Source: Neptunicoccus cionae (GTDB lineage Bacteria > Pseudomonadota > Alphaproteobacteria > Rhodobacterales > Rhodobacteraceae). From it: a stretch of 64,000 nucleotides of DNA. Below, one piece after another: positions 56,913 to 64,000 of this stretch. Each line of letters starts with the position of its first letter. The first letter of the stretch is position 1. The notes beneath the pieces were generated by a model, which worked only from the letters and a program-made list of their open reading frames with translations, did not search any database and was not told the DNA's origin. Where the stretch lies: NCBI RefSeq assembly GCF_002860325.1, contig NZ_PKOJ01000001.1, positions 310,001-374,000 on the forward strand, in the 5' to 3' direction. The translations under genes were made by a program, and so were the position numbers.

Positions 56913-58148
56913 TCAGCCCTTGCGGATCGTCCCGTCGGCCACCCACGCGTCAAAGATTTCCAACGCTTTATCGGCAAAAGCCTGATCGTTGATATGGGCA
57001 TCTACCTCGGAATAGCTGATCGGGTCGGTCATCACCTTGCGGGCTTCATCGGTAAACGCGGCCAGCCCTTCGGGATCATGGGCGACATCACCTTCCCTGT
57101 CCCATTCCTCAACCCCGTGCAGCGGCATGATGAAATGGGTCGGAGCAGTTGCTGTTCCCAGCCGTTTCGCCACTTCGCGGGCGGATTCGCGGCGTTCCTC
57201 GGCGTTGAAGGCAGAAGATTTAATCAGGCGGTTGTGTTCGTGGAAGGGGCGGTCGCGATAGCTTTCGGGGATATCCTGCCAGCCTGCGAAATCCACCAGA
57301 TCGAAACAGCCGGGGGCCACGATTTGTGGGATGCCGCTGCGCCCCGCGCTCAGCATCCGCTGGCTGCCGCTGCTGACGACGGATCCGGCAATGAGATTAC
57401 CGAGTTCCGACAGGCCGAAATCCATCACGCAACAGAACCGCCTCTGTGCGGCAAGGGATTCAAAGGCCATGCCGCCCATGCCGGTGGCGTGGAAAATGGC
57501 AACCTCGTAGCCGCGTTGTTCCAAAGCGGGTTTCAGCAATTTCATGTATTTCAGGCAGGACGACCCGAGCGAGGTCATCCCGACAATGGGCCGGTCGGTA
57601 GAAGGTGGCTCTACCGCACGGGCCGCCCCCAGCACCGCTCCGGCTGCTTGCGACAGGGATGCCTTGCAGACAGAGTTCAGGCCGTAGAGGCCACCCGCCC
57701 AAAGGATCATCTGAATGTCCGCTGACAGGCGTTCCGGCGGGATGATCGGGGAAAAAGAGACTGTTGAAACGACATATTTCGGCACGCCCATCGGCAGCGC
57801 CTGACAGACATCCAGCGCCAGATCGGTGCCCATCGTGCCGCCCAGAATGACTACGCCGTCAAACGCGCCGTCGCGGTACAGCTGCGCTGCTAGCTGCGAT
57901 GCGCCCCGCGCCATGATCTGCATGGCGGTGTTTTCATCGCCAGAGTCGATCGCCGCCTTGATAGAGCTTCCAGCGGCTTCGGCCACGGCATGTTTGGAGT
58001 GGTCACAAGGCTCTGACGGGTCGCCCAGTACGCTGACATCCATCGTCAGAACACCGCCACCCATTGCGGTGATCCGCTCTGCCATATAGTTCAGTTCGTC
58101 GTCTTTCGTGTCATAGGTGCCAACGATCAGAATAGTCTTGTCAGACAT
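56913..58148 (-). CDS. Tm-1-like ATP-binding (UPF0261) protein
   Basis: A 411-residue cytoplasmic protein. ILIVGTYDTKDDELNYMAER is the Tm-1 N-terminal motif; GGTMGTDLALDVCQALPMGV, GMTSLGSSCLKYMKLL and GIPQIVAPGCFDLVDFAG follow. Tomato Tm-1, its distant relative, binds ATP and inhibits a viral helicase; bacterial members are of unknown function and are often next to a TIM-barrel partner, which is absent here. It is the last gene of the catabolic operon, overlapping the kinase by eight bases. Confidence 0.85.
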   Translation of the reverse strand: MSDKTILIVGTYDTKDDELNYMAERITAMGGGVLTMDVSVLGDPSEPCDHSKHAVAEAAGSSIKAAIDSGDENTAMQIMARGASQLAAQLYRDGAFDGVVILGGTMGTDLALDVCQALPMGVPKYVVSTVSFSPIIPPERLSADIQMILWAGGLYGLNSVCKASLSQAAGAVLGAARAVEPPSTDRPIVGMTSLGSSCLKYMKLLKPALEQRGYEVAIFHATGMGGMAFESLAAQRRFCCVMDFGLSELGNLIAGSVVSSGSQRMLSAGRSGIPQIVAPGCFDLVDFAGWQDIPESYRDRPFHEHNRLIKSSAFNAEERRESAREVAKRLGTATAPTHFIMPLHGVEEWDREGDVAHDPEGLAAFTDEARKVMTDPISYSEVDAHINDQAFADKALEIFDAWVADGTIRKG

Positions 58149-59088
58149 GGGTGCCTCCCGAATTCAGCCAGTTTGCAACCACTTGGGTTGCTGTTTTGAT
58201 GTTGCGCGCATTCCGTGCTTCTGCGCCTTCAAGTTCCATCCGCGTTACGATCCAGCCTACATAGGTGCAGGCCCGCAGGGCGATGAACAGAGGCAGATGG
58301 GTGATGTTGATAGCGCGTTCGGACTGGTAGCCGCCAATCAGCGCAGCTTGCAATTCACTGGCGTTGCTTTCTTCGCGGATGCGGAAAATCGTTGTGGCCA
58401 GTTCAAACAGCCGGAAACCGTGGCCGCAATCGTCAAAGTCGATCAGATGCAGGTCGTCCCCGTCGATCAGGATGTTCTCGCGCAGCAGGTCGGCGTGGAT
58501 CAGGCCGAAATCATGCTGCCCCTCCGCCAGTGCCGTTGCAGCCTTCGCGCGAAAGCGTTCAAGCAGCGTTTCTTGCTCTGCCGTCAGGGTCGGATTTTCC
58601 CAGAACCGCCCCCAGAGCGGTGTCTCACCGATCAGACCCTCCGTATCCCAAGCCGGACGGGTGAACCCCTGTGGCGGTGTCCACGCATCAGAGGCCGCAT
58701 GCATCCGCGCCATGGCCTGACCAAGCCTGTAAAACGTGCCTTCCGGATCATCCAGATCAAGAGGCGTTCCGTAGGCGCCCATCTGATGGCCGGGCAACCA
58801 TGTCAGCAAATCGAATTGCGCGCCCTCTAACACTTGCAGATGGGCCCCATCCGAACCGGCAATCGGGCGGGGCAGCGAAAGCCCGGCCCCGTCGAGTGCG
58901 TCCATCCACGCCAGTTCCGAGCGCAACTCCCCGTCCGTGCGATAGCCGCCGCGGTGATGGCGCAGGGCGTAGACCGCATCAGGTGTTGTCACGCGGTAGA
59001 CGCGGTTTTCTCTCTCGGCCACCAGATCCACAGACAGTGTTTCAATATCCCAGCGGTCGATCGCCTTTTGCGCAAGCGTCTCTGTCAT
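58141..59088 (-). CDS. APH-fold small-molecule kinase (hydroxylysine-kinase-like)
   Basis: A 315-residue phosphotransferase of the aminoglycoside-phosphotransferase/homoserine-kinase-II fold. FGLIHADLLRENILIDGDD is the catalytic loop and LHLIDFDDCGHGFRLFELA the metal-binding Asp. The N-lobe begins ~25 (RENRVYRVTTPDAVYALRHH). Human AGPHD1 (hydroxylysine kinase) has the same fold, and it is coupled (ATGA) to a phospho-lyase-like PLP enzyme, so an amino-alcohol substrate such as hydroxylysine or ethanolamine is likely. Confidence 0.82.
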   Translation of the reverse strand: MTETLAQKAIDRWDIETLSVDLVAERENRVYRVTTPDAVYALRHHRGGYRTDGELRSELAWMDALDGAGLSLPRPIAGSDGAHLQVLEGAQFDLLTWLPGHQMGAYGTPLDLDDPEGTFYRLGQAMARMHAASDAWTPPQGFTRPAWDTEGLIGETPLWGRFWENPTLTAEQETLLERFRAKAATALAEGQHDFGLIHADLLRENILIDGDDLHLIDFDDCGHGFRLFELATTIFRIREESNASELQAALIGGYQSERAINITHLPLFIALRACTYVGWIVTRMELEGAEARNARNIKTATQVVANWLNSGGTHV

Positions 59089-60365
59089 GGCTGTACATCC
59101 GTCAGCACCTGATCCAGCGTTTCTACCAGCAGATCCGCGTTTTCGCGCGTGAATTGCAGGTTCGGTCTGATTTTCAGTGTGTTGTAGTGGATGCCGATCT
59201 TGTTCAGCAGCACACCGCGATTGCGCAGTTCCTCAATCACCCGCAACAGATACTCCGTCGCAGGCGCTTTGGTGGCGCGATCCGTCACCAGTTCCGCGCC
59301 AAAGAACATGCCCCGACCCCGCACATCGCCAATGACTATGTGTTTGTCTGCAAGCTCTTGCAGTCTGGCTTTGGCATAGGCCCCCACATCCGCGGCCTGT
59401 TGCATCAGTCCTTCCTGTTCAATCACTTCCAACACCGCCATTGCGGTGGCGCAGGATACTGGATTGCCGCCAAAGGTGTTGAAATAGCGGAATGCAGTGC
59501 GGAATTCGTGCATGATTGCGGATGTTGTTACGACACCTGCCACCGGATGGCCGTTGCCCATCGGTTTGCCAAGGGTCACAACATCGGGCGTGATCCCCTG
59601 ATACTGATGCCCCCACATATGGCTTCCGGTGCGTCCGAAACCGGGCTGGACCTCATCCGCGATCAGGATGCCGCCGGCATCGTGGACAGCTTTCAGCGTC
59701 GCATCAAGGAAACCGGCGGGCAGATCGGGAAAACCTTCATTGGCAAAGAACGGATCAATCAGCAGGGCGGCAAACCCGTGACCGCTTTCTTCCAGTTCGC
59801 CAATCTTTGCCTTCACCTGCTCGGCAAAATACGCCGCCGGATCATCCGAGGGCGGACGATAGCTGTCGGGGGCCGGAACATGGCGGATATGGCCCGATTT
59901 GCCGAATTTCGACGGGTTGGTGGTGGACAGGGCCGAAACTGCCGTGGTGTTGCCGTGATAGGTGTGATCGGTGACGATGATCCCCGTTTTACCGGTCACG
60001 GCCTCTGCCATGCGCAGGGCAACGTCATTGGCCTCTGACCCGGTGCAACACAGCAGCGCAGTGTTCAGCGCATCGTCAAAGGTCGCTGTCAGCTTCTCCG
60101 CGTAATCGACAATTCCTTCGTGCAGATAGCGGGTGTGGGTGTTCAGCGTTGCCGCCTGATCGCACATGGCTTTGACCACATGGGGGTGGCAATGCCCCAC
60201 ATGGGGGACATTGTTGTAGCAATCGAGGTATTTCTTGCCGTCATGGTCCCAGACCCAGACGCCTTCACCTTTCACCAGATGAACAGGCTCTTCGTAAAAG
60301 GTGGACATGTTGGGCCCGAGAACGGCATCGCGGCGGGCAAGGAGAGATTTGCTGAGCGGGTTCAT
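59085..60365 (-). CDS. class-III PLP enzyme, AGXT2L1/AGXT2L2 phospho-lyase-like
   Basis: A 426-residue fold-type I PLP enzyme. The PLP Lys is in TPDVVTLGKPMGNGHPVAGV; LIADEVQPGFGRTG binds PLP. The motifs YNNVPHVGHCHPHVVKA, NTFGGNPVSCA and GDVRGRGMFFGAELV closely resemble human AGXT2L1 (ethanolamine-phosphate phospho-lyase) and AGXT2L2 (5-phosphohydroxylysine phospho-lyase) more than ordinary transaminases. The neighbouring kinase would supply the phosphorylated substrate and the dehydrogenase would take the aldehyde. ATGA overlap with both neighbours. Confidence 0.85.
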   Translation of the reverse strand: MNPLSKSLLARRDAVLGPNMSTFYEEPVHLVKGEGVWVWDHDGKKYLDCYNNVPHVGHCHPHVVKAMCDQAATLNTHTRYLHEGIVDYAEKLTATFDDALNTALLCCTGSEANDVALRMAEAVTGKTGIIVTDHTYHGNTTAVSALSTTNPSKFGKSGHIRHVPAPDSYRPPSDDPAAYFAEQVKAKIGELEESGHGFAALLIDPFFANEGFPDLPAGFLDATLKAVHDAGGILIADEVQPGFGRTGSHMWGHQYQGITPDVVTLGKPMGNGHPVAGVVTTSAIMHEFRTAFRYFNTFGGNPVSCATAMAVLEVIEQEGLMQQAADVGAYAKARLQELADKHIVIGDVRGRGMFFGAELVTDRATKAPATEYLLRVIEELRNRGVLLNKIGIHYNTLKIRPNLQFTRENADLLVETLDQVLTDVQP

Positions 60366-61846
60366 AACTGTATCCATGCGGTTTTCAGGTTGGTGTATTT
60401 GTCCAGCGCGTGGAGCGATTTATCCGAACCGTTGCCCGATTGTTTATGACCTGTCAGCGGCACAGTGTTATCCGGCCCGCCGTAGGTGTTCACATGGACA
60501 ACGCCCGAATTGATTGCCCCGATCATGCGATGGGCGCGGGACAGGTTGGCGGTCCAGACACCGGCGGCCAGACCCAATTCGCTGTCATTGGCAAGCTGTA
60601 CGGCCTCTTCCTCTGTGTCAAACGGCGTTACCGCCAGAACCGGCCCGAAAACTTCCTTGCGGAACACGGTGTTCGACGGTGTCACGCCGGACAGGATGGT
60701 TGGCGCCATATAGCTGCCGCCGGTTTCTTCAAGAATGCGGTTGCCGCCTGTGACGCATTCCGCACCTTCGCTGATTGCGGCTTGCGTCAGGCGCAGGTTT
60801 CCGGCCAGTTGGGTTTCCGAATTGACCGCACCAATCTGGGTGTTCAGGTTCAGTGGATCACCAACCTTGAAGGCTTCGGCGTGGGTTTTCAGTGCGGCCA
60901 CAAAATCGTCGTGAATGCTGCGTTCGACCAGCAGGCGGGACGCGGCCACACAGACCTGTCCCGCGTTTCGGAAGATGCCTGCCGCCGAAACTGCCGCCGC
61001 CTTATCGAGATCGGGCGCGTCGGCAAAAACCACATTCGGGGATTTCCCGCCCAGTTCCAGATAGACCCGTTTCAGGTTCGACTGGGCCGAAGCCTCCAGC
61101 AGCTTGCGCCCCGTCATGCCCGATCCGGTAAAGGCCAGCACATCCACGTCCATAGACCGTGCCAGCGCATCCCCTGCGATCCGGCCATCGCCGGTGATGA
61201 CGTTCAGCACACCCGCAGGCAAACCGGCGCCCGCAGCGATTTCAGCCAGCCGCAGCAGAGACAGGGATGCGGTTTCAGCCGGTTTCACCACGATGGAATT
61301 GCCCGCTGCAATGGCTGGGGCAATCTTCCACGCGCCGATCATCAGCGGGAAGTTCCAAGGGATAATAGCACCGACCACGCCGACCGGTTCGTGATGCACC
61401 AGACCCAGCGTGCCGGCTGCGGTAGGGGCGATTTCGCCCGGAATCTTGTCGATGGCTTCGGCGTAATAGCGGAAGGTTGCAGCGGCGGAACCGGCCTCGG
61501 CCTTGTAGGCCATAGCAAATTCCGTGCCGTTGTCGCGGATGCCAAGCACCGACAGCGCCAGCGCATCGGCCTCAATCGCGTCGGCCACAGCAAAAAGAAT
61601 TTTTTTGCGGGCAGCAGGGGCCAGTCGTGACCAGCGCCCGTCGTTAAAGGCTGCACGGGCAGAGGCCACGGCCATATCCACCTCGGCCGAAGTGGCGTTG
61701 GCAATCGTGGTCAATTGCGCACCGTCAATCGGAGAAGTCACAGCCATCGGTTCGGCGGCACCTTGCACGGGGGCGTTGTCGATGAACAGGGATTGAGGGG
61801 CTACAGTTTCACGCCGCAGCGCGTCGATTTGCGTTTGTGTCGTCAT
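60362..61846 (-). CDS. NAD(P)-dependent aldehyde dehydrogenase
   Basis: A 494-residue aldehyde dehydrogenase that oxidises an aldehyde to the acid. VGAIIPWNFPLMIGAWKIAP binds the cofactor; LELGGKSPNVVF has the general-base Glu and RNAGQVCVAASRLLV the catalytic Cys. It resembles the gamma-Glu-aminobutyraldehyde (PuuC) type. The ATG at 61846 overlaps the tctA stop; its frame opens far upstream inside tctA. It would accept the aldehyde from the phospho-lyase. Confidence 0.94.
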   Translation of the reverse strand: MTTQTQIDALRRETVAPQSLFIDNAPVQGAAEPMAVTSPIDGAQLTTIANATSAEVDMAVASARAAFNDGRWSRLAPAARKKILFAVADAIEADALALSVLGIRDNGTEFAMAYKAEAGSAAATFRYYAEAIDKIPGEIAPTAAGTLGLVHHEPVGVVGAIIPWNFPLMIGAWKIAPAIAAGNSIVVKPAETASLSLLRLAEIAAGAGLPAGVLNVITGDGRIAGDALARSMDVDVLAFTGSGMTGRKLLEASAQSNLKRVYLELGGKSPNVVFADAPDLDKAAAVSAAGIFRNAGQVCVAASRLLVERSIHDDFVAALKTHAEAFKVGDPLNLNTQIGAVNSETQLAGNLRLTQAAISEGAECVTGGNRILEETGGSYMAPTILSGVTPSNTVFRKEVFGPVLAVTPFDTEEEAVQLANDSELGLAAGVWTANLSRAHRMIGAINSGVVHVNTYGGPDNTVPLTGHKQSGNGSDKSLHALDKYTNLKTAWIQL

Positions 61847-63327
61847 TGGTTTTCCGTAGTGTTGCGATCCCTCCACATGCGCCAGACATGAGAGCCGAGC
61901 ACGACGAGGATCAGAAGAAACAGGATAAAGGCGATGGGACGGTCGATCATATCGAGCGGGGATTTCACGCGCATCATCGAGGTGCGCAGCTTTGCTTCCA
62001 TGATACCGCCCAGAACCATGCCCAGAATGATCGGCACAATCGGCAGGTTGAGCCGCTTCAGCATAAATCCGAACACACCGAAACCGGCAGCAATGGCGCA
62101 GTCGATGGTAGAGTTGCGCAGGGAATATACGCCGACAAAAGACAGGGTCAGAATGATAACGCCCAGAAAACGGGTCGGAATCTGGATGATCTTCAGCAGC
62201 AGGTTGGTGGAACACAGCAGGAAGGCCACCACCATCACGTTCAACACCAGAAGCGCGATATATAGTGCGACAACAAAATCCATCTGGTTCTGAAATAGCT
62301 GCGGGCCGGGTACGACGTTGTGCACGTAAAACACGGACAGCATCATTGCCGTCAGCGCCTCGCCCGGAATGCCAAGCGCCAGTAACGGGATCATCGCGGC
62401 GGCGGGCACAGCGTTGTTGGAGGCTTCAGAGGCGATCAGCCCCTCTGGTGCGCCGTTGCCGAACAATTCCGGCGTTTTCGATCCGCGCCGTGCGGCAGTG
62501 TAAGACATGAATTGCGCGGTAAATTCCCCGACACCGGGGATCATCCCCATCAGCACCCCGAAAGAGGCACTGACACTGGCCACCTTTTTGTAGCGGAACA
62601 GTTCCTTAAAGCCCTGAAACAGATCGCCGGACAAGGTGCCGGTGCGCGGTGCGCGGTTTTTGTCCACCAGCAAGACGATAGCTTGGGAAATGGCGAACAG
62701 ACCCAGCACGACCACGATCAGATCAACGCCGCCGGACAGCCAGCTTTGCCCGAAGGTGTAGCGTTTGGAATACTGGATCGGCTCCAGCCCGATGGTGTTC
62801 AGCCAGATGCCGAAACAAGCCAAAGCACCCGCAATCAGGATCTGCCCGCGATGGGCCAGAACCACCAGAATGATGCCGAGCAGCGAGGCGAGGAAAATCT
62901 CGCGGCTGCCGAAATGGGGGGCGATTGCGGCTAGCATGGGCGACAGGAAGATCAGGCAGACCACCGCAAAGACGCCACCGAAAAAGCTGGCAGAATAGGC
63001 CAGCGACAGCGCGCGGCGGCCTTCGCCCCGTTGGGTCATCGGATAACCGTCATAGGTGGTCAGTGCGTTGACCGCTGTGCCCGGTGTGTTCACCAGTACG
63101 GCAGGTATCGCGCCGCCATACATGGAACTGCCGTAAATCCCCAGCAGCGCGGTCAGACCGACAATAGGATCAAGCGAGAACGTCGCCGGAAGCAGGATGG
63201 CAATCGCCACCGCAGCGCCAACACCGGGAATAGCGCCGATGATGACACCTCCGACTGAACCGACAACAAGGGCGATGAGGACATCCCAGCGGGCGAGGAT
63301 GTCAAAGCTGGAAAGAAGCAGATCCAT
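61843..63327 (-). CDS. tctA: tripartite tricarboxylate transporter, large membrane subunit
   Basis: A 494-residue integral membrane subunit with about twelve hydrophobic segments. VIIGAIPGVGAAVAIAILLP and GMIPGVGEFTAQFMSY are the two TctA signature loops. Its partners are TctB and the binding protein TctC. TTT systems usually import carboxylates, some with amino groups; here the operon suggests the cargo is a precursor of the amino-alcohol pathway. It begins one base after the tctB stop. Confidence 0.94.
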   Translation of the reverse strand: MDLLLSSFDILARWDVLIALVVGSVGGVIIGAIPGVGAAVAIAILLPATFSLDPIVGLTALLGIYGSSMYGGAIPAVLVNTPGTAVNALTTYDGYPMTQRGEGRRALSLAYSASFFGGVFAVVCLIFLSPMLAAIAPHFGSREIFLASLLGIILVVLAHRGQILIAGALACFGIWLNTIGLEPIQYSKRYTFGQSWLSGGVDLIVVVLGLFAISQAIVLLVDKNRAPRTGTLSGDLFQGFKELFRYKKVASVSASFGVLMGMIPGVGEFTAQFMSYTAARRGSKTPELFGNGAPEGLIASEASNNAVPAAAMIPLLALGIPGEALTAMMLSVFYVHNVVPGPQLFQNQMDFVVALYIALLVLNVMVVAFLLCSTNLLLKIIQIPTRFLGVIILTLSFVGVYSLRNSTIDCAIAAGFGVFGFMLKRLNLPIVPIILGMVLGGIMEAKLRTSMMRVKSPLDMIDRPIAFILFLLILVVLGSHVWRMWRDRNTTENQ

Positions 63328-63328
63328 A

Positions 63329-63847
63329 TCAGAAATTCAAAATCATAAAGTTGCGCAATCCGTCGGGCAGATACTCATAGAGCGCGCCTCCGGGGATTTT
63401 CACGCCGAGAAGCGTCTTGAAGATCACTACAATCGCCACACCGGATGCAGCGGCCCAGCCCAGCATCGCCGGACTGCGATAGCCCATTCGTAGGGCCAGA
63501 AGGGAGGTGAAGAGAACAGTGCTGGGCAGATAGCCCAGTCGCGGGACCAGCACCACATAGACCATGAACCAGCCAACGAATTCAAAGGCTCTCAGCCAGA
63601 TTACGACTTCAGCACCGGTGCCGTTTTTGGCCTGTTGCCGCATGTGGGTCAGAAGGTGCAGACCAGTGAATAGGACCATGCCGATCACACCGACACCGGG
63701 CCAGAAGGCGGGCTGTGCAAAAAGTTTCCCTTTGGCGGAAAACTTGGCCTGATCGCCGATTTGCGTCAGCAGTAGAACGGATATTGCGAAGAACAGACCT
63801 ACAAACAGAAACTCTCCGGGTTTGGCTCTTTTCGGTTCGGCGCTCAT
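63329..63847 (-). CDS. tctB: tripartite tricarboxylate transporter, small membrane subunit
   Basis: A 172-residue TctB-family protein with four hydrophobic helices (FLFVGLFFAISVLLLTQIG; FWPGVGVIGMVLFTGLHLL; YLPSTVLFTSLLALRMGYR; MLGWAAASGVAIVVIFKTLL). The ATG at 63847 has GAAGGAG upstream; the frame opens 17 codons before. It lies between the hairpin after tctC and tctA. Confidence 0.9.
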   Translation of the reverse strand: MSAEPKRAKPGEFLFVGLFFAISVLLLTQIGDQAKFSAKGKLFAQPAFWPGVGVIGMVLFTGLHLLTHMRQQAKNGTGAEVVIWLRAFEFVGWFMVYVVLVPRLGYLPSTVLFTSLLALRMGYRSPAMLGWAAASGVAIVVIFKTLLGVKIPGGALYEYLPDGLRNFMILNF

Positions 63848-63870
63848 TTCGTGCTCCTTCGCAGGTTTGG

Positions 63871-63896
63871 AAAAACCGGCCCGATTGGGCCGGTTC
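63871..63896 (-). terminator. intercistronic hairpin between tctC and tctB
   Basis: On the minus strand AACCGGCCC, four-base loop, GGGCCGGTT, then TTTCC. It lies about 20 bases past the tctC stop and 25 before tctB. It may partly terminate, leaving more tctC than tctBA mRNA, as is common in binding-protein operons. Confidence 0.7.
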
Positions 63897-63917
63897 AAAT
63901 CTTGAAACAGGGTAGGA

Positions 63918-64000
63918 TTATTCTACCAGACCGTTCAGTGTGCCCAGTTTGCCGGCGTCTGTTTCGATCCGCGCAGCAGATGTTTCAGCATCCTGCCAGT
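63918..64000 (-). CDS. tctC: tripartite tricarboxylate transporter substrate-binding protein (C-terminal fragment)
   Basis: The last 27 codons of a minus-strand gene cut by the right edge, ending with WQDAETSAARIETDAGKLGT and LNGLVE before TAA. The fragment alone cannot be assigned. Its place before tctB and tctA makes it almost surely the periplasmic binding protein of the same transporter. Confidence 0.6.
   Translation of the reverse strand, partial: WQDAETSAARIETDAGKLGTLNGLVE

What the first reader, a model, noticed from the sequence alone, without database searches (positions are those of the whole stretch)
56913..64000. Operon for a kinase / phospho-lyase / aldehyde dehydrogenase route with its own TTT transporter
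Seen: seven minus-strand genes in one run, with 4- to 8-base overlaps joining tctA, the aldehyde dehydrogenase, the class-III PLP enzyme, the APH-fold kinase and the UPF0261 gene. Known: AGXT2L1 and AGXT2L2, which this PLP enzyme resembles in several motifs, remove phosphate and ammonia from phosphoethanolamine or 5-phosphohydroxylysine to give an aldehyde, and AGPHD1, an APH-fold protein, is hydroxylysine kinase. Inference: the organism imports an amino alcohol (5-hydroxylysine, ethanolamine or a relative), phosphorylates it, eliminates it to a semialdehyde and oxidises that to an acid such as 2-aminoadipate. The TTT transporter and the UPF0261 member are not part of any described version of this route that I know of.
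Basis: partly seen in the sequence, partly recalled or inferred. Interest (0 to 1): 0.75.

Follow-up and report, generated by a model that had tools for sequence, protein, structure and literature searches.

The report
Predicted aromatic amine breakdown operon
A bacterium carries a gene set that probably imports dopamine- or noradrenaline-like amines and breaks them down by adding phosphate and eliminating it, which would be a new way for microbes to eat such compounds, but no enzyme test has been done.

Summary
In detail: seven co-directional genes with short overlaps. The PLP enzyme is a phospho-lyase by homology: it groups with both solved phospho-lyases and apart from 12 other class III enzymes of its genome. 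The APH protein looks like an amino-alcohol kinase. So 'kinase, phospho-lyase, aldehyde dehydrogenase' stands, as homology. The proposed substrates (hydroxylysine, ethanolamine) do not fit the surroundings. In relatives the recurring core is transporter, omega-transaminase, aldehyde dehydrogenase and UPF0261; the lyase lies near UPF0261 in 24 of 73 UPF0261 genomes. UPF0261 is tied to the homoprotocatechuate (hpa) meta-cleavage pathway: it co-occurs with hpaF in 62 of 198 family genomes (odds ratio 65, p=5e-29) and in 7 of 7 UPF0261 genomes drawn outside the family (p=9e-9). In G095 lyase and kinase join hpaF by 4-base overlaps. The closest solved UPF0261 protein (9mpy) has acetovanillone bound. 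My reading: the operon degrades phenolic or catecholic phenethylamines; kinase plus lyase turn beta-hydroxylated ones (octopamine, noradrenaline type) into arylacetaldehydes on the way to 3,4-dihydroxyphenylacetate, and UPF0261 probably phosphorylates a ring hydroxyl. All substrates are inferred.

The parts
56913..58148 (-). UPF0261 (PF06792 + PF23189) protein, predicted ATP-dependent kinase of a ring hydroxyl
   Evidence: NF002676, 626 bits, cut-off 556; best solved match 9mpy with bound acetovanillone; 52 of 86 locus-invariant residues in the aligned range shared with 9mpy, including every invariant His and Lys
58141..59088 (-). APH-fold kinase, predicted to phosphorylate the side-chain alcohol of an amino alcohol
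   Evidence: 6ef6, E 3.3e-35; H198, D200, N205, D217 invariant in 15 of 15
59085..60377 (-). class III PLP enzyme, predicted amino-alcohol-phosphate phospho-lyase (ammonia and phosphate releasing)
   Evidence: NNV motif in 54 of 54 lyase-clade rows, 0 of 12 other class III
60362..61846 (-). aldehyde dehydrogenase (best NCBIfam scores PuuC 520 bits and aminobutyraldehyde dehydrogenase 429, StyD phenylacetaldehyde dehydrogenase 404, all below their cut-offs), predicted arylacetaldehyde dehydrogenase
61843..63327 (-). tctA, large membrane subunit of a tripartite tricarboxylate-type transporter
63329..63898 (-). tctB, small membrane subunit (probable start 63847)
63918..64000 (-). tctC, periplasmic binding protein (3' part only; the gene begins at 64910, beyond the window); its first loop reads PPGDLED

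Best explanation
The operon is the upper part of a catabolic route for phenolic or catecholic phenethylamines that ends in homoprotocatechuate (3,4-dihydroxyphenylacetate) and its meta-cleavage. The TTT transporter brings in the amine. Amines without a side-chain hydroxyl (dopamine, tyramine type) are turned into arylacetaldehydes by the divergently coded omega-transaminase. Beta-hydroxylated amines, Ar-CH(OH)-CH2-NH2 (noradrenaline, octopamine type), are phosphorylated on the side-chain hydroxyl by the APH kinase; the PLP phospho-lyase then eliminates phosphate and releases ammonia to give the same arylacetaldehyde. The aldehyde dehydrogenase oxidises it to the arylacetate. UPF0261 phosphorylates a ring hydroxyl of substrate or intermediate, as trapping, protection or activation; in some relatives a HAD hydrolase gene in the same locus may take the phosphate off again. 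The hpa enzymes of the genome (contig C12) finish the route. Shown by sequence: families, operon, phylogenetic placement, linkage to hpa. Inferred: every substrate, the order of steps and the role of UPF0261.
For: Lyase placement. Kinase. Co-occurrence of UPF0261 and hpaF (PF02962) in 198 genomes of 197 genera: 62 with both, 11 and 10 with one, 115 with none, odds ratio 65, p=4.7e-29; within the 132 homogentisate-dioxygenase-positive genomes odds ratio 71, within the 66 negative ones 14 (p=0.013). Independent set outside the family: 7 of 7 UPF0261 genomes (from 4 families) have hpaF against 16 of 278 others, p=8.7e-9. Physical linkage: hpaF within 20 kb of UPF0261 in 15 of 62 genomes with both (about 0.6 expected if placed at random in 3.9 Mb). 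Single runs: G095 PLP-KIN-hpaF-hpaE-hpaD-hpaG-hpaH (L089; 4-base overlaps PLP/KIN and KIN/hpaF; hpaD by clustering); G104 tctCBA-ALDH-UPF0261-hpaF-hpaE-hpaD-hpaG-PLP-KIN, all one way, with 809 bases between hpaG and PLP (L078); G187 tctCBA-ALDH-UPF0261-hpaF-hpaE-hpaD-ALDH-decarboxylase-hpaG-hpaH-hpaI, hpaR on the other strand (L083). HpaB near UPF0261 in L085 and L097-L100; Pyridoxal_deC decarboxylase within hpa in L079, L080, L083, L085 (Pfam on L085 only). UPF0261 and aromatics: 9mpy with acetovanillone; MarK, a single-component kinase that starts acetovanillone catabolism in Novosphingobium aromaticivorans (passages in PMC13101465). The host has an hpaI-H-G-D-E-F cluster on C12 (L082). TctC loop PPGD[LMSF]ED in 46 of 47 operon TctCs (some loci duplicated) against GG in 7 of 9 own-genome TctCs: a weak hint of a cationic ligand. 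Control: the arfB-pncB-linked lyase-kinase clade sits in loci without this gene set, apart from one MarR-type hit (11 loci), and the mid-scoring lyase group shows no association with UPF0261 (10 of 24, p=0.65).
Against: No enzyme or growth test exists. Among UPF0261-bearing genomes, lyase presence adds nothing to hpaF presence (26 of 29 against 36 of 44, p=0.51), so the aromatic link of the lyase rests on its operon. 47 of the 62 genomes with both genes, the window's included, do not have hpaF within 20 kb of UPF0261, and of 20 fetched UPF0261 loci without a lyase only 1 shows an hpa gene, against 7 of 20 with one. 11 of 73 UPF0261 genomes lack hpaF; only three of these are under 90% complete. 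TTT transporters are known mostly for carboxylates (recalled). UPF0261 shares only about 28% identity with 9mpy, and that 9mpy (Saro_1862) is MarK is my inference. The decarboxylase's best named family is L-2,4-diaminobutyrate decarboxylase, far below cut-off, so its substrate is open. Without HpaB in the host a tyramine or octopamine product would not reach homoprotocatechuate by the known hydroxylase, and the P450 of relatives is absent (matches 25% over 371 residues and 36% over 157).
Confidence: 0.58

Rival explanations
1. One reading: the operon imports an aliphatic amino alcohol (5-hydroxylysine, ethanolamine, 1-amino-2-propanol), phosphorylates it, eliminates it to a semialdehyde or aldehyde and oxidises that.
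For: Lyase and kinase are homologous to enzymes that act on such compounds (6ef6's substrate recalled); a TTT carrier would suit an amino acid such as hydroxylysine (recalled family knowledge).
Against: No lysine, aminoadipate or ethanolamine genes recognised among the neighbours that I read; instead hpa genes, HpaB and a decarboxylase in several relatives. UPF0261 co-occurs with hpaF at odds ratio 65. An aliphatic route gives no reason for a family with an acetovanillone-binding member.
Confidence: 0.17
2. The substrate is a ring-methoxylated or otherwise modified phenethylamine or phenylacetate (3-methoxytyramine, normetanephrine, homovanillate). UPF0261 phosphorylates the 4-hydroxyl as MarK does with acetovanillone, and O-demethylation supplies homoprotocatechuate.
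For: The 9mpy ligand carries a 3-methoxy-4-hydroxyphenyl ring; 55 of 62 genomes with hpaF and UPF0261 lack HpaB, so homoprotocatechuate must come from elsewhere; P450, ferredoxin, glutamine synthetase-like and amidotransferase genes recur near the locus.
Against: The P450 is absent from this genome and found in only 3 of 20 lyase-bearing fetched loci; no O-demethylase was looked for elsewhere in the genome.
Confidence: 0.15
3. Kinase and lyase are a nitrogen-scavenging add-on with an unrelated substrate that only shares regulation with the UPF0261-transaminase core.
For: Only 24 of 73 UPF0261 genomes have a close relative of the lyase within 20 kb (window genome added), and a sister clade sits alone at an arfB-pncB locus with no transporter recognised.
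Against: Linked kinases group apart from the arfB ones (98, outgroup doubtful); kinase and lyase are joined by 4-base overlaps to hpaF in G095 and to transaminase-MBL genes in G190.
Confidence: 0.1

Closest known systems
Ethanolamine-phosphate / 5-phosphohydroxylysine phospho-lyases (ETNPPL 6tor, phospholyase 5g4i, the latter recalled as from Arthrobacter; Veiga-da-Cunha 2012 known from a reference list in PMC8154272)
   Same: Same class III clade, same predicted chemistry: elimination of phosphate from a terminal amine with release of ammonia.
   Different: Operon partners point to aryl substrates; activity untested.
(S)-1-amino-2-propanol kinase and the RMM/Aaum (Aut) microcompartment of Mycobacterium and Rhodococcus (Mallette and Kimber 2018, title seen in the reference list of PMC8007038; PMC6620236 passages)
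   Same: APH-family phosphotransferase, aminotransferase-like enzyme and aldehyde dehydrogenase in one cluster.
   Different: No shell proteins here; TTT carrier, UPF0261 and hpa link; aldehyde dehydrogenase of the PuuC type, not acyl-CoA forming as predicted there.
MarK (Hall 2025; title and a citing passage seen only) and Saro_1862 structure 9mpy, acetovanillone catabolism
   Same: Same UPF0261 family as Saro_1862, 52 of 86 locus-invariant residues shared.
   Different: About 28% identity; I recognised no biotin carboxylase genes in the fetched loci; amine and hpa genes instead.
4-hydroxyphenylacetate / homoprotocatechuate (hpa) meta-cleavage pathway
   Same: The host encodes it, and it is joined to the operon in relatives.
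   Different: HpaB is absent from the host and from 55 of 62 genomes with both markers.
Bacterial aromatic amine catabolism by amine oxidases or dehydrogenases (tyramine, dopamine, octopamine in Pseudomonas; recalled, no paper on it seen here)
   Same: Same presumed substrates and same arylacetaldehyde stage.
   Different: Here transaminase plus kinase and phospho-lyase instead of an oxidase.

Membership tests
Class III PLP phospho-lyases (AGXT2L / A1RDF1) | Falls with characterised phospho-lyases and not with transaminases | tested here: met
   Tree (quick method, SH-aLRT only), 100 for the split from 12 class III enzymes of the same genome; 5g4i and 6tor on the lyase side; the 12 rows checked as class III
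Class III PLP phospho-lyases (AGXT2L / A1RDF1) | Eliminates phosphate and ammonia from an amino-alcohol phosphate | not testable with these tools
   needs enzyme assay
APH-fold amino-alcohol kinases | APH domain with intact catalytic motifs | tested here: met
   PF01636 120.8 bits; H198, D200, N205, D217 invariant in 15 of 15
APH-fold amino-alcohol kinases | Closer to an amino-alcohol kinase than to other APH enzymes | tested here: inconclusive
   best solved match 6ef6 at 125 bits, next 59; the call names it 'Aminoglycoside phosphotransferase', that it is the aminopropanol kinase is recalled
Hydroxylysine degradation (HYKK + PHYKPL) | Genetic link to lysine or 2-aminoadipate metabolism | tested here: inconclusive
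   none recognised among neighbours read; substrate itself not testable
RMM/Aaum aminopropanol microcompartment | BMC shell protein genes in the cluster | tested here: not met
   all seven operon genes and IclR have other Pfam families
UPF0261 / MarK-type aryl kinase | Both UPF0261 domains, and residues conserved in the locus kept in the aryl-binding homologue | tested here: met
   PF06792, PF23189; 52 of the 86 invariant residues in the aligned range identical in 9mpy, among them K15, K124, H220, H303, H305, N306, H385, N387, D388
UPF0261 / MarK-type aryl kinase | Phosphorylates a phenolic hydroxyl | not testable with these tools
   needs enzyme assay; MarK paper not held
Upper pathway to homoprotocatechuate | Host encodes the hpa lower pathway | tested here: met
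   hpaF above the Pfam cut-off, below the NCBIfam one; hpaI 368.5 bits, cut-off 368.8; hpaD, E, G, H by clustering and similarity
Upper pathway to homoprotocatechuate | Operon physically joined to hpa genes in the window's own genome | tested here: not met
   operon on C1, hpa on C12; joined only in relatives
Tripartite tricarboxylate transporters | TctA, TctB and TctC present | tested here: met
   PF01970, PF07331, PF03401

The most novel reading that the evidence does not exclude
Catecholamine-like beta-hydroxylated amines are degraded by double phosphorylation: UPF0261 caps a ring hydroxyl, which would keep the catechol aldehyde from oxidising or cyclising, and the APH kinase activates the side-chain alcohol for a PLP phospho-lyase. 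That would be an oxidase-free bacterial route for noradrenaline and octopamine, with a TTT carrier for an aromatic amine.
Probability: 0.33. Interest if true: 0.82.

Novelty: new variant of a known kind. Interest (0 to 1): 0.63.

Why it matters
If true, it gives genes for a phosphorylation-elimination route to aryl amino alcohols, a role in amine catabolism for a UPF0261 subfamily that NCBIfam still calls hypothetical (the family includes the tomato virus-resistance protein Tm-1), and an aromatic amine as substrate of a TTT carrier. It also gives a marker, UPF0261 with hpaF, for finding candidate dopamine- and noradrenaline-using bacteria in genomes.

Tried and rejected
Rejected: PLP enzyme as an ordinary omega-transaminase (tree); microcompartment (no shell genes); general catabolic versatility as the sole cause of the UPF0261-hpaF link (it holds within homogentisate-dioxygenase-positive genomes); HpaB-fed 4-hydroxyphenylacetate as the general entry (UPF0261 against HpaB odds ratio 1.0; HpaB in 19 of 198 and not in the host).

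Led nowhere: paper searches on phospho-lyase with hydroxylysine, phosphoethanolamine or aminopropanol kinase and on bacterial octopamine, norepinephrine, tyramine or dopamine catabolism, of which I saw listings only; no single search put phospho-lyase and octopamine together. Search for the MarK paper; VIA-align second look (library absent). The first gene caller took antisense frames for genes and was replaced by a codon-usage caller; it still misplaces some starts and merges or misses some genes (UPF0261 of L053 missed, hpaF of L078 missed and located). Overlap lengths in relatives depend on its starts.

Counting notes: the lists of genomes and positions were typed. In the main test I kept 73 of 77 UPF0261 genomes (four with only 31-34% identity dropped) and 72 of 81 hpaF genomes (nine weak ones dropped); with all kept the table is 64, 13, 17, 104, p=8e-23. 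The 'strong' lyase list (37 genomes) includes some arfB-linked members (L139, L140, L143, L145). The loci L042-L061 were chosen for lacking a lyase nearby, L062-L081 for having one (two of them from G104), L083-L089 for hpaF near UPF0261 or the lyase. The kinase tree left out 11 loci (duplicates or close relatives), and of eight loci searched for a distant kinase one was recovered; its branch is so long (10) that its kinship is doubtful. The 12 class III rows include the operon's own omega-transaminase; one search confirmed that all 12 match class III queries.

Full report
Observation. The window is bases 310001-374000 of contig C1 of its genome. Start and stop codons overlap by 4 bases (tctA/ALDH, PLP/kinase), 4 or 16 (ALDH/PLP) and 8 (kinase/UPF0261). 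Divergent to tctC, outside the window, lie an IclR regulator and an omega-transaminase (P0006, NCBIfam NF005683 714 bits, cut-off 575). Families were confirmed by Pfam and NCBIfam.

The PLP enzyme and the kinase. Against all solved structures the PLP enzyme matches 5g4i 'phospholyase' at 415 bits and 6tor 'ethanolamine-phosphate phospho-lyase' at 371; the next family, dialkylglycine decarboxylase, is at 213. In a tree of 66 rows (quick method, SH-aLRT support, several long branches among the outgroup) the window enzyme, 20 UPF0261-linked relatives, the arfB-linked group, the Rhizobiaceae group, the fused PRK06148-type protein of the same genome, 5g4i and 6tor lie on one side of a branch with support 100, and 12 class III enzymes of the same genome, the operon's omega-transaminase among them, on the other. 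The own genome has 15 class III matches; besides these 12 and the window enzyme, the fused protein is on the lyase side and L125 was not used. The kinase keeps the APH catalytic residues in 15 of 15 sequences. Its best solved match is 6ef6, E 3.3e-35, which I recall as the (S)-1-amino-2-propanol kinase; one search showed the title of that paper in a reference list, not the entry code. Kinases linked to UPF0261 form one group with five others (98), apart from those of the arfB-pncB locus.

The core is not the kinase and lyase. A scan of named genomes gave 39 loci. In 9 of 13 loci from Rhodobacteraceae or Thiotrichaceae (L003-L015) transporter, lyase, kinase and UPF0261 stand together, mostly with a divergent transaminase and IclR, and ALDH in five of the nine; L007 is too short to tell, and L010, L014, L015 differ. 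In Rhizobiaceae the lyase sits with an ABC-type transporter, a short-chain dehydrogenase, a GntR regulator and its kinase (binding protein, dehydrogenase, regulator and kinase by Pfam on one locus each). I then searched 198 genomes of the window's family: UPF0261 in 77, and 24 of the 73 with a good match have a close relative of the lyase within 20 kb (window genome added). I read 20 UPF0261 loci without a lyase nearby and 20 with one (19 genomes). By the strict gene calls, the first 20 hold transaminase in 12, transporter in 11, ALDH in 9 and any hpa gene in 1; the second 20 hold transporter in 17, transaminase in 16, ALDH in 16, kinase in 19 and any hpa gene in 7. Some loci end at contig edges. 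So transporter, transaminase, ALDH and UPF0261 often hold together without lyase and kinase.

The link to homoprotocatechuate. hpa genes appeared beside these loci, so I tested hpaF (PF02962) in the same 198 genomes. UPF0261 and hpaF: 62 both, 11 UPF0261 only, 10 hpaF only, 115 neither; odds ratio 65, p=4.7e-29. Homogentisate dioxygenase as a control for catabolic breadth also associates with UPF0261 (odds ratio 8.4), but within the 132 genomes that have it the UPF0261-hpaF odds ratio is 71. The genomes are from 197 genera, yet no species tree was used. Outside the family, in the class-level draw (285 genomes after removing the four listed as of the family), 7 of 7 UPF0261 genomes have hpaF against 16 of 278 (p=8.7e-9); the seven are from four families. 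Where both genes occur in the family, hpaF is within 20 kb in 15 of 62 genomes, about 0.6 expected. The clearest loci: G095 (L089), lyase-kinase-hpaF-hpaE-hpaD-hpaG-hpaH with 4-base overlaps between lyase, kinase and hpaF; G104 (L078), tctCBA-ALDH-UPF0261-hpaF-hpaE-hpaD-hpaG-lyase-kinase, all one way, with 809 bases before the lyase; G190 (L080), tctCBA-ALDH-UPF0261-hpaF-hpaE-hpaD-decarboxylase-hpaG, with transaminase-MBL-lyase-kinase divergent and joined by 4-base overlaps; G187 (L083), tctCBA-ALDH-UPF0261-hpaF-hpaE-hpaD-ALDH-decarboxylase-hpaG-hpaH-hpaI; hpaR lies on the other strand in the last two. NCBIfam equivalog cut-offs are passed by HpaD, HpaE, HpaH and HpaB-1 of L097, by HpaD of L078 and by HpaD_Fe of L081; HpaG, HpaF and HpaR score below theirs. 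HpaB stands near UPF0261 in L085 and, outside the family, in L097-L100.

What this says about substrates. The lower pathway starts from 3,4-dihydroxyphenylacetate. A phospho-lyase that acts on Ar-CH(O-phosphate)-CH2-NH2 and a transaminase that acts on Ar-CH2-CH2-NH2 give the same arylacetaldehyde, which the ALDH would oxidise to the arylacetate. That would explain why kinase and lyase are optional and the transaminase commoner. HpaB is rare (19 of 198) and unrelated to UPF0261 (odds ratio 1.0), and the host has none, so in the host catecholic amines (dopamine, noradrenaline) fit better than tyramine or octopamine. This is inference. Genes that I read as DMGDH-like or trimethylamine-dehydrogenase-like in L009, L047, L048, L077 and L094 (Pfam: Oxidored_FMN for L009 and L077, DAO-GCV_T for L094; L047 and L048 by similarity) would suit N-methylated amines, again inference.

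UPF0261. An AlphaFold2 model (pLDDT 80) and sequence search give as best solved match 9mpy, 'Saro_1862, a UPF0261 domain protein from Novosphingobium aromaticivorans with bound acetovanillone'. Global superposition is poor (TM 0.54), so the sequence match is the better evidence. Of 89 residues invariant in 26 locus sequences, 86 fall in the aligned range and 52 of these are identical in 9mpy, including every invariant His and Lys. [quoted passage not shown] the MarK paper was not held. Two-component phenol kinases of other families start the same route elsewhere (PMC9618137 abstract and passages). That Saro_1862 is MarK, and that the window protein is likewise a kinase of a ring hydroxyl, is inference. 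HAD hydrolase genes in some of the loci (3 of 20, 3 of 20 and 4 of 8 in the three sets) could remove the phosphate.

Transporter. The first loop of TctC reads PPGD[LMSF]ED in 46 of 47 operon-linked TctCs and PPGDVDD in one (some loci are duplicates), whereas 7 of 9 TctCs of this genome have the usual GG there. Extra acidic residues would suit a cationic ligand. This is a hint only.

Results against the reading. Lyase presence does not add to hpaF presence among UPF0261 genomes (p=0.51). In the window's own genome operon and hpa cluster are on different contigs. hpa genes are adjacent in a minority of loci. The decarboxylase inside hpa has no assigned substrate. The P450 seen near several loci is missing here, and the role of the P450-glutamine synthetase-amidotransferase set is unexplained. 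Nothing in the paper listings that I saw supports or excludes the substrate, and no search joined phospho-lyase with octopamine; a claim of novelty rests on those searches alone.

Verdict. The surroundings point to aromatic, not aliphatic, amino alcohols. A new variant of a known kind, testable with a few enzyme assays.

Noticed in passing
L146 (own genome C13:37708-45892): A paralogous TTT locus with an acidic TctC loop (PPGDIED), a class III transaminase, an ALDH 65% identical to the operon's, an MBL fragment and an IclR 40% identical, but no UPF0261, kinase or lyase among the genes called.
   Followed up: partly
L126-L131, L139, L140, L143, L145: Many Rhodobacteraceae carry a sister lyase-kinase pair at a recurring site, mostly beside arfB- and/or pncB-like genes, without transporter recognised; its substrate is unknown.
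   Followed up: partly
L123 (own genome C11:388729-389892): The genome also encodes a fused protein (open frame 1032 aa) whose lyase-like domain groups with ETNPPL (96); I take it for the PRK06148 type, not scanned.
   Followed up: no
L058, L062, L072, L087, L088, L097, L098, L101: P450 and glutamine synthetase-like genes, in several loci with amidotransferase or ferredoxin genes, recur next to UPF0261; perhaps a glutamyl-protected oxidation of an amine.
   Followed up: partly
L009:10440-12479, L048:6331-8421, L077:14135-16171, L094:9132-11594, L047:6549-8543: Flavin oxidoreductase (Oxidored_FMN) and DAO-GCV_T type genes inside UPF0261 loci, possible N-demethylases.
   Followed up: partly
L016-L035, L037-L041 (Rhizobiaceae and other Rhizobiales): A different lyase-kinase locus with ABC-type transporter, short-chain dehydrogenase and GntR regulator, conserved across these genomes.
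   Followed up: no
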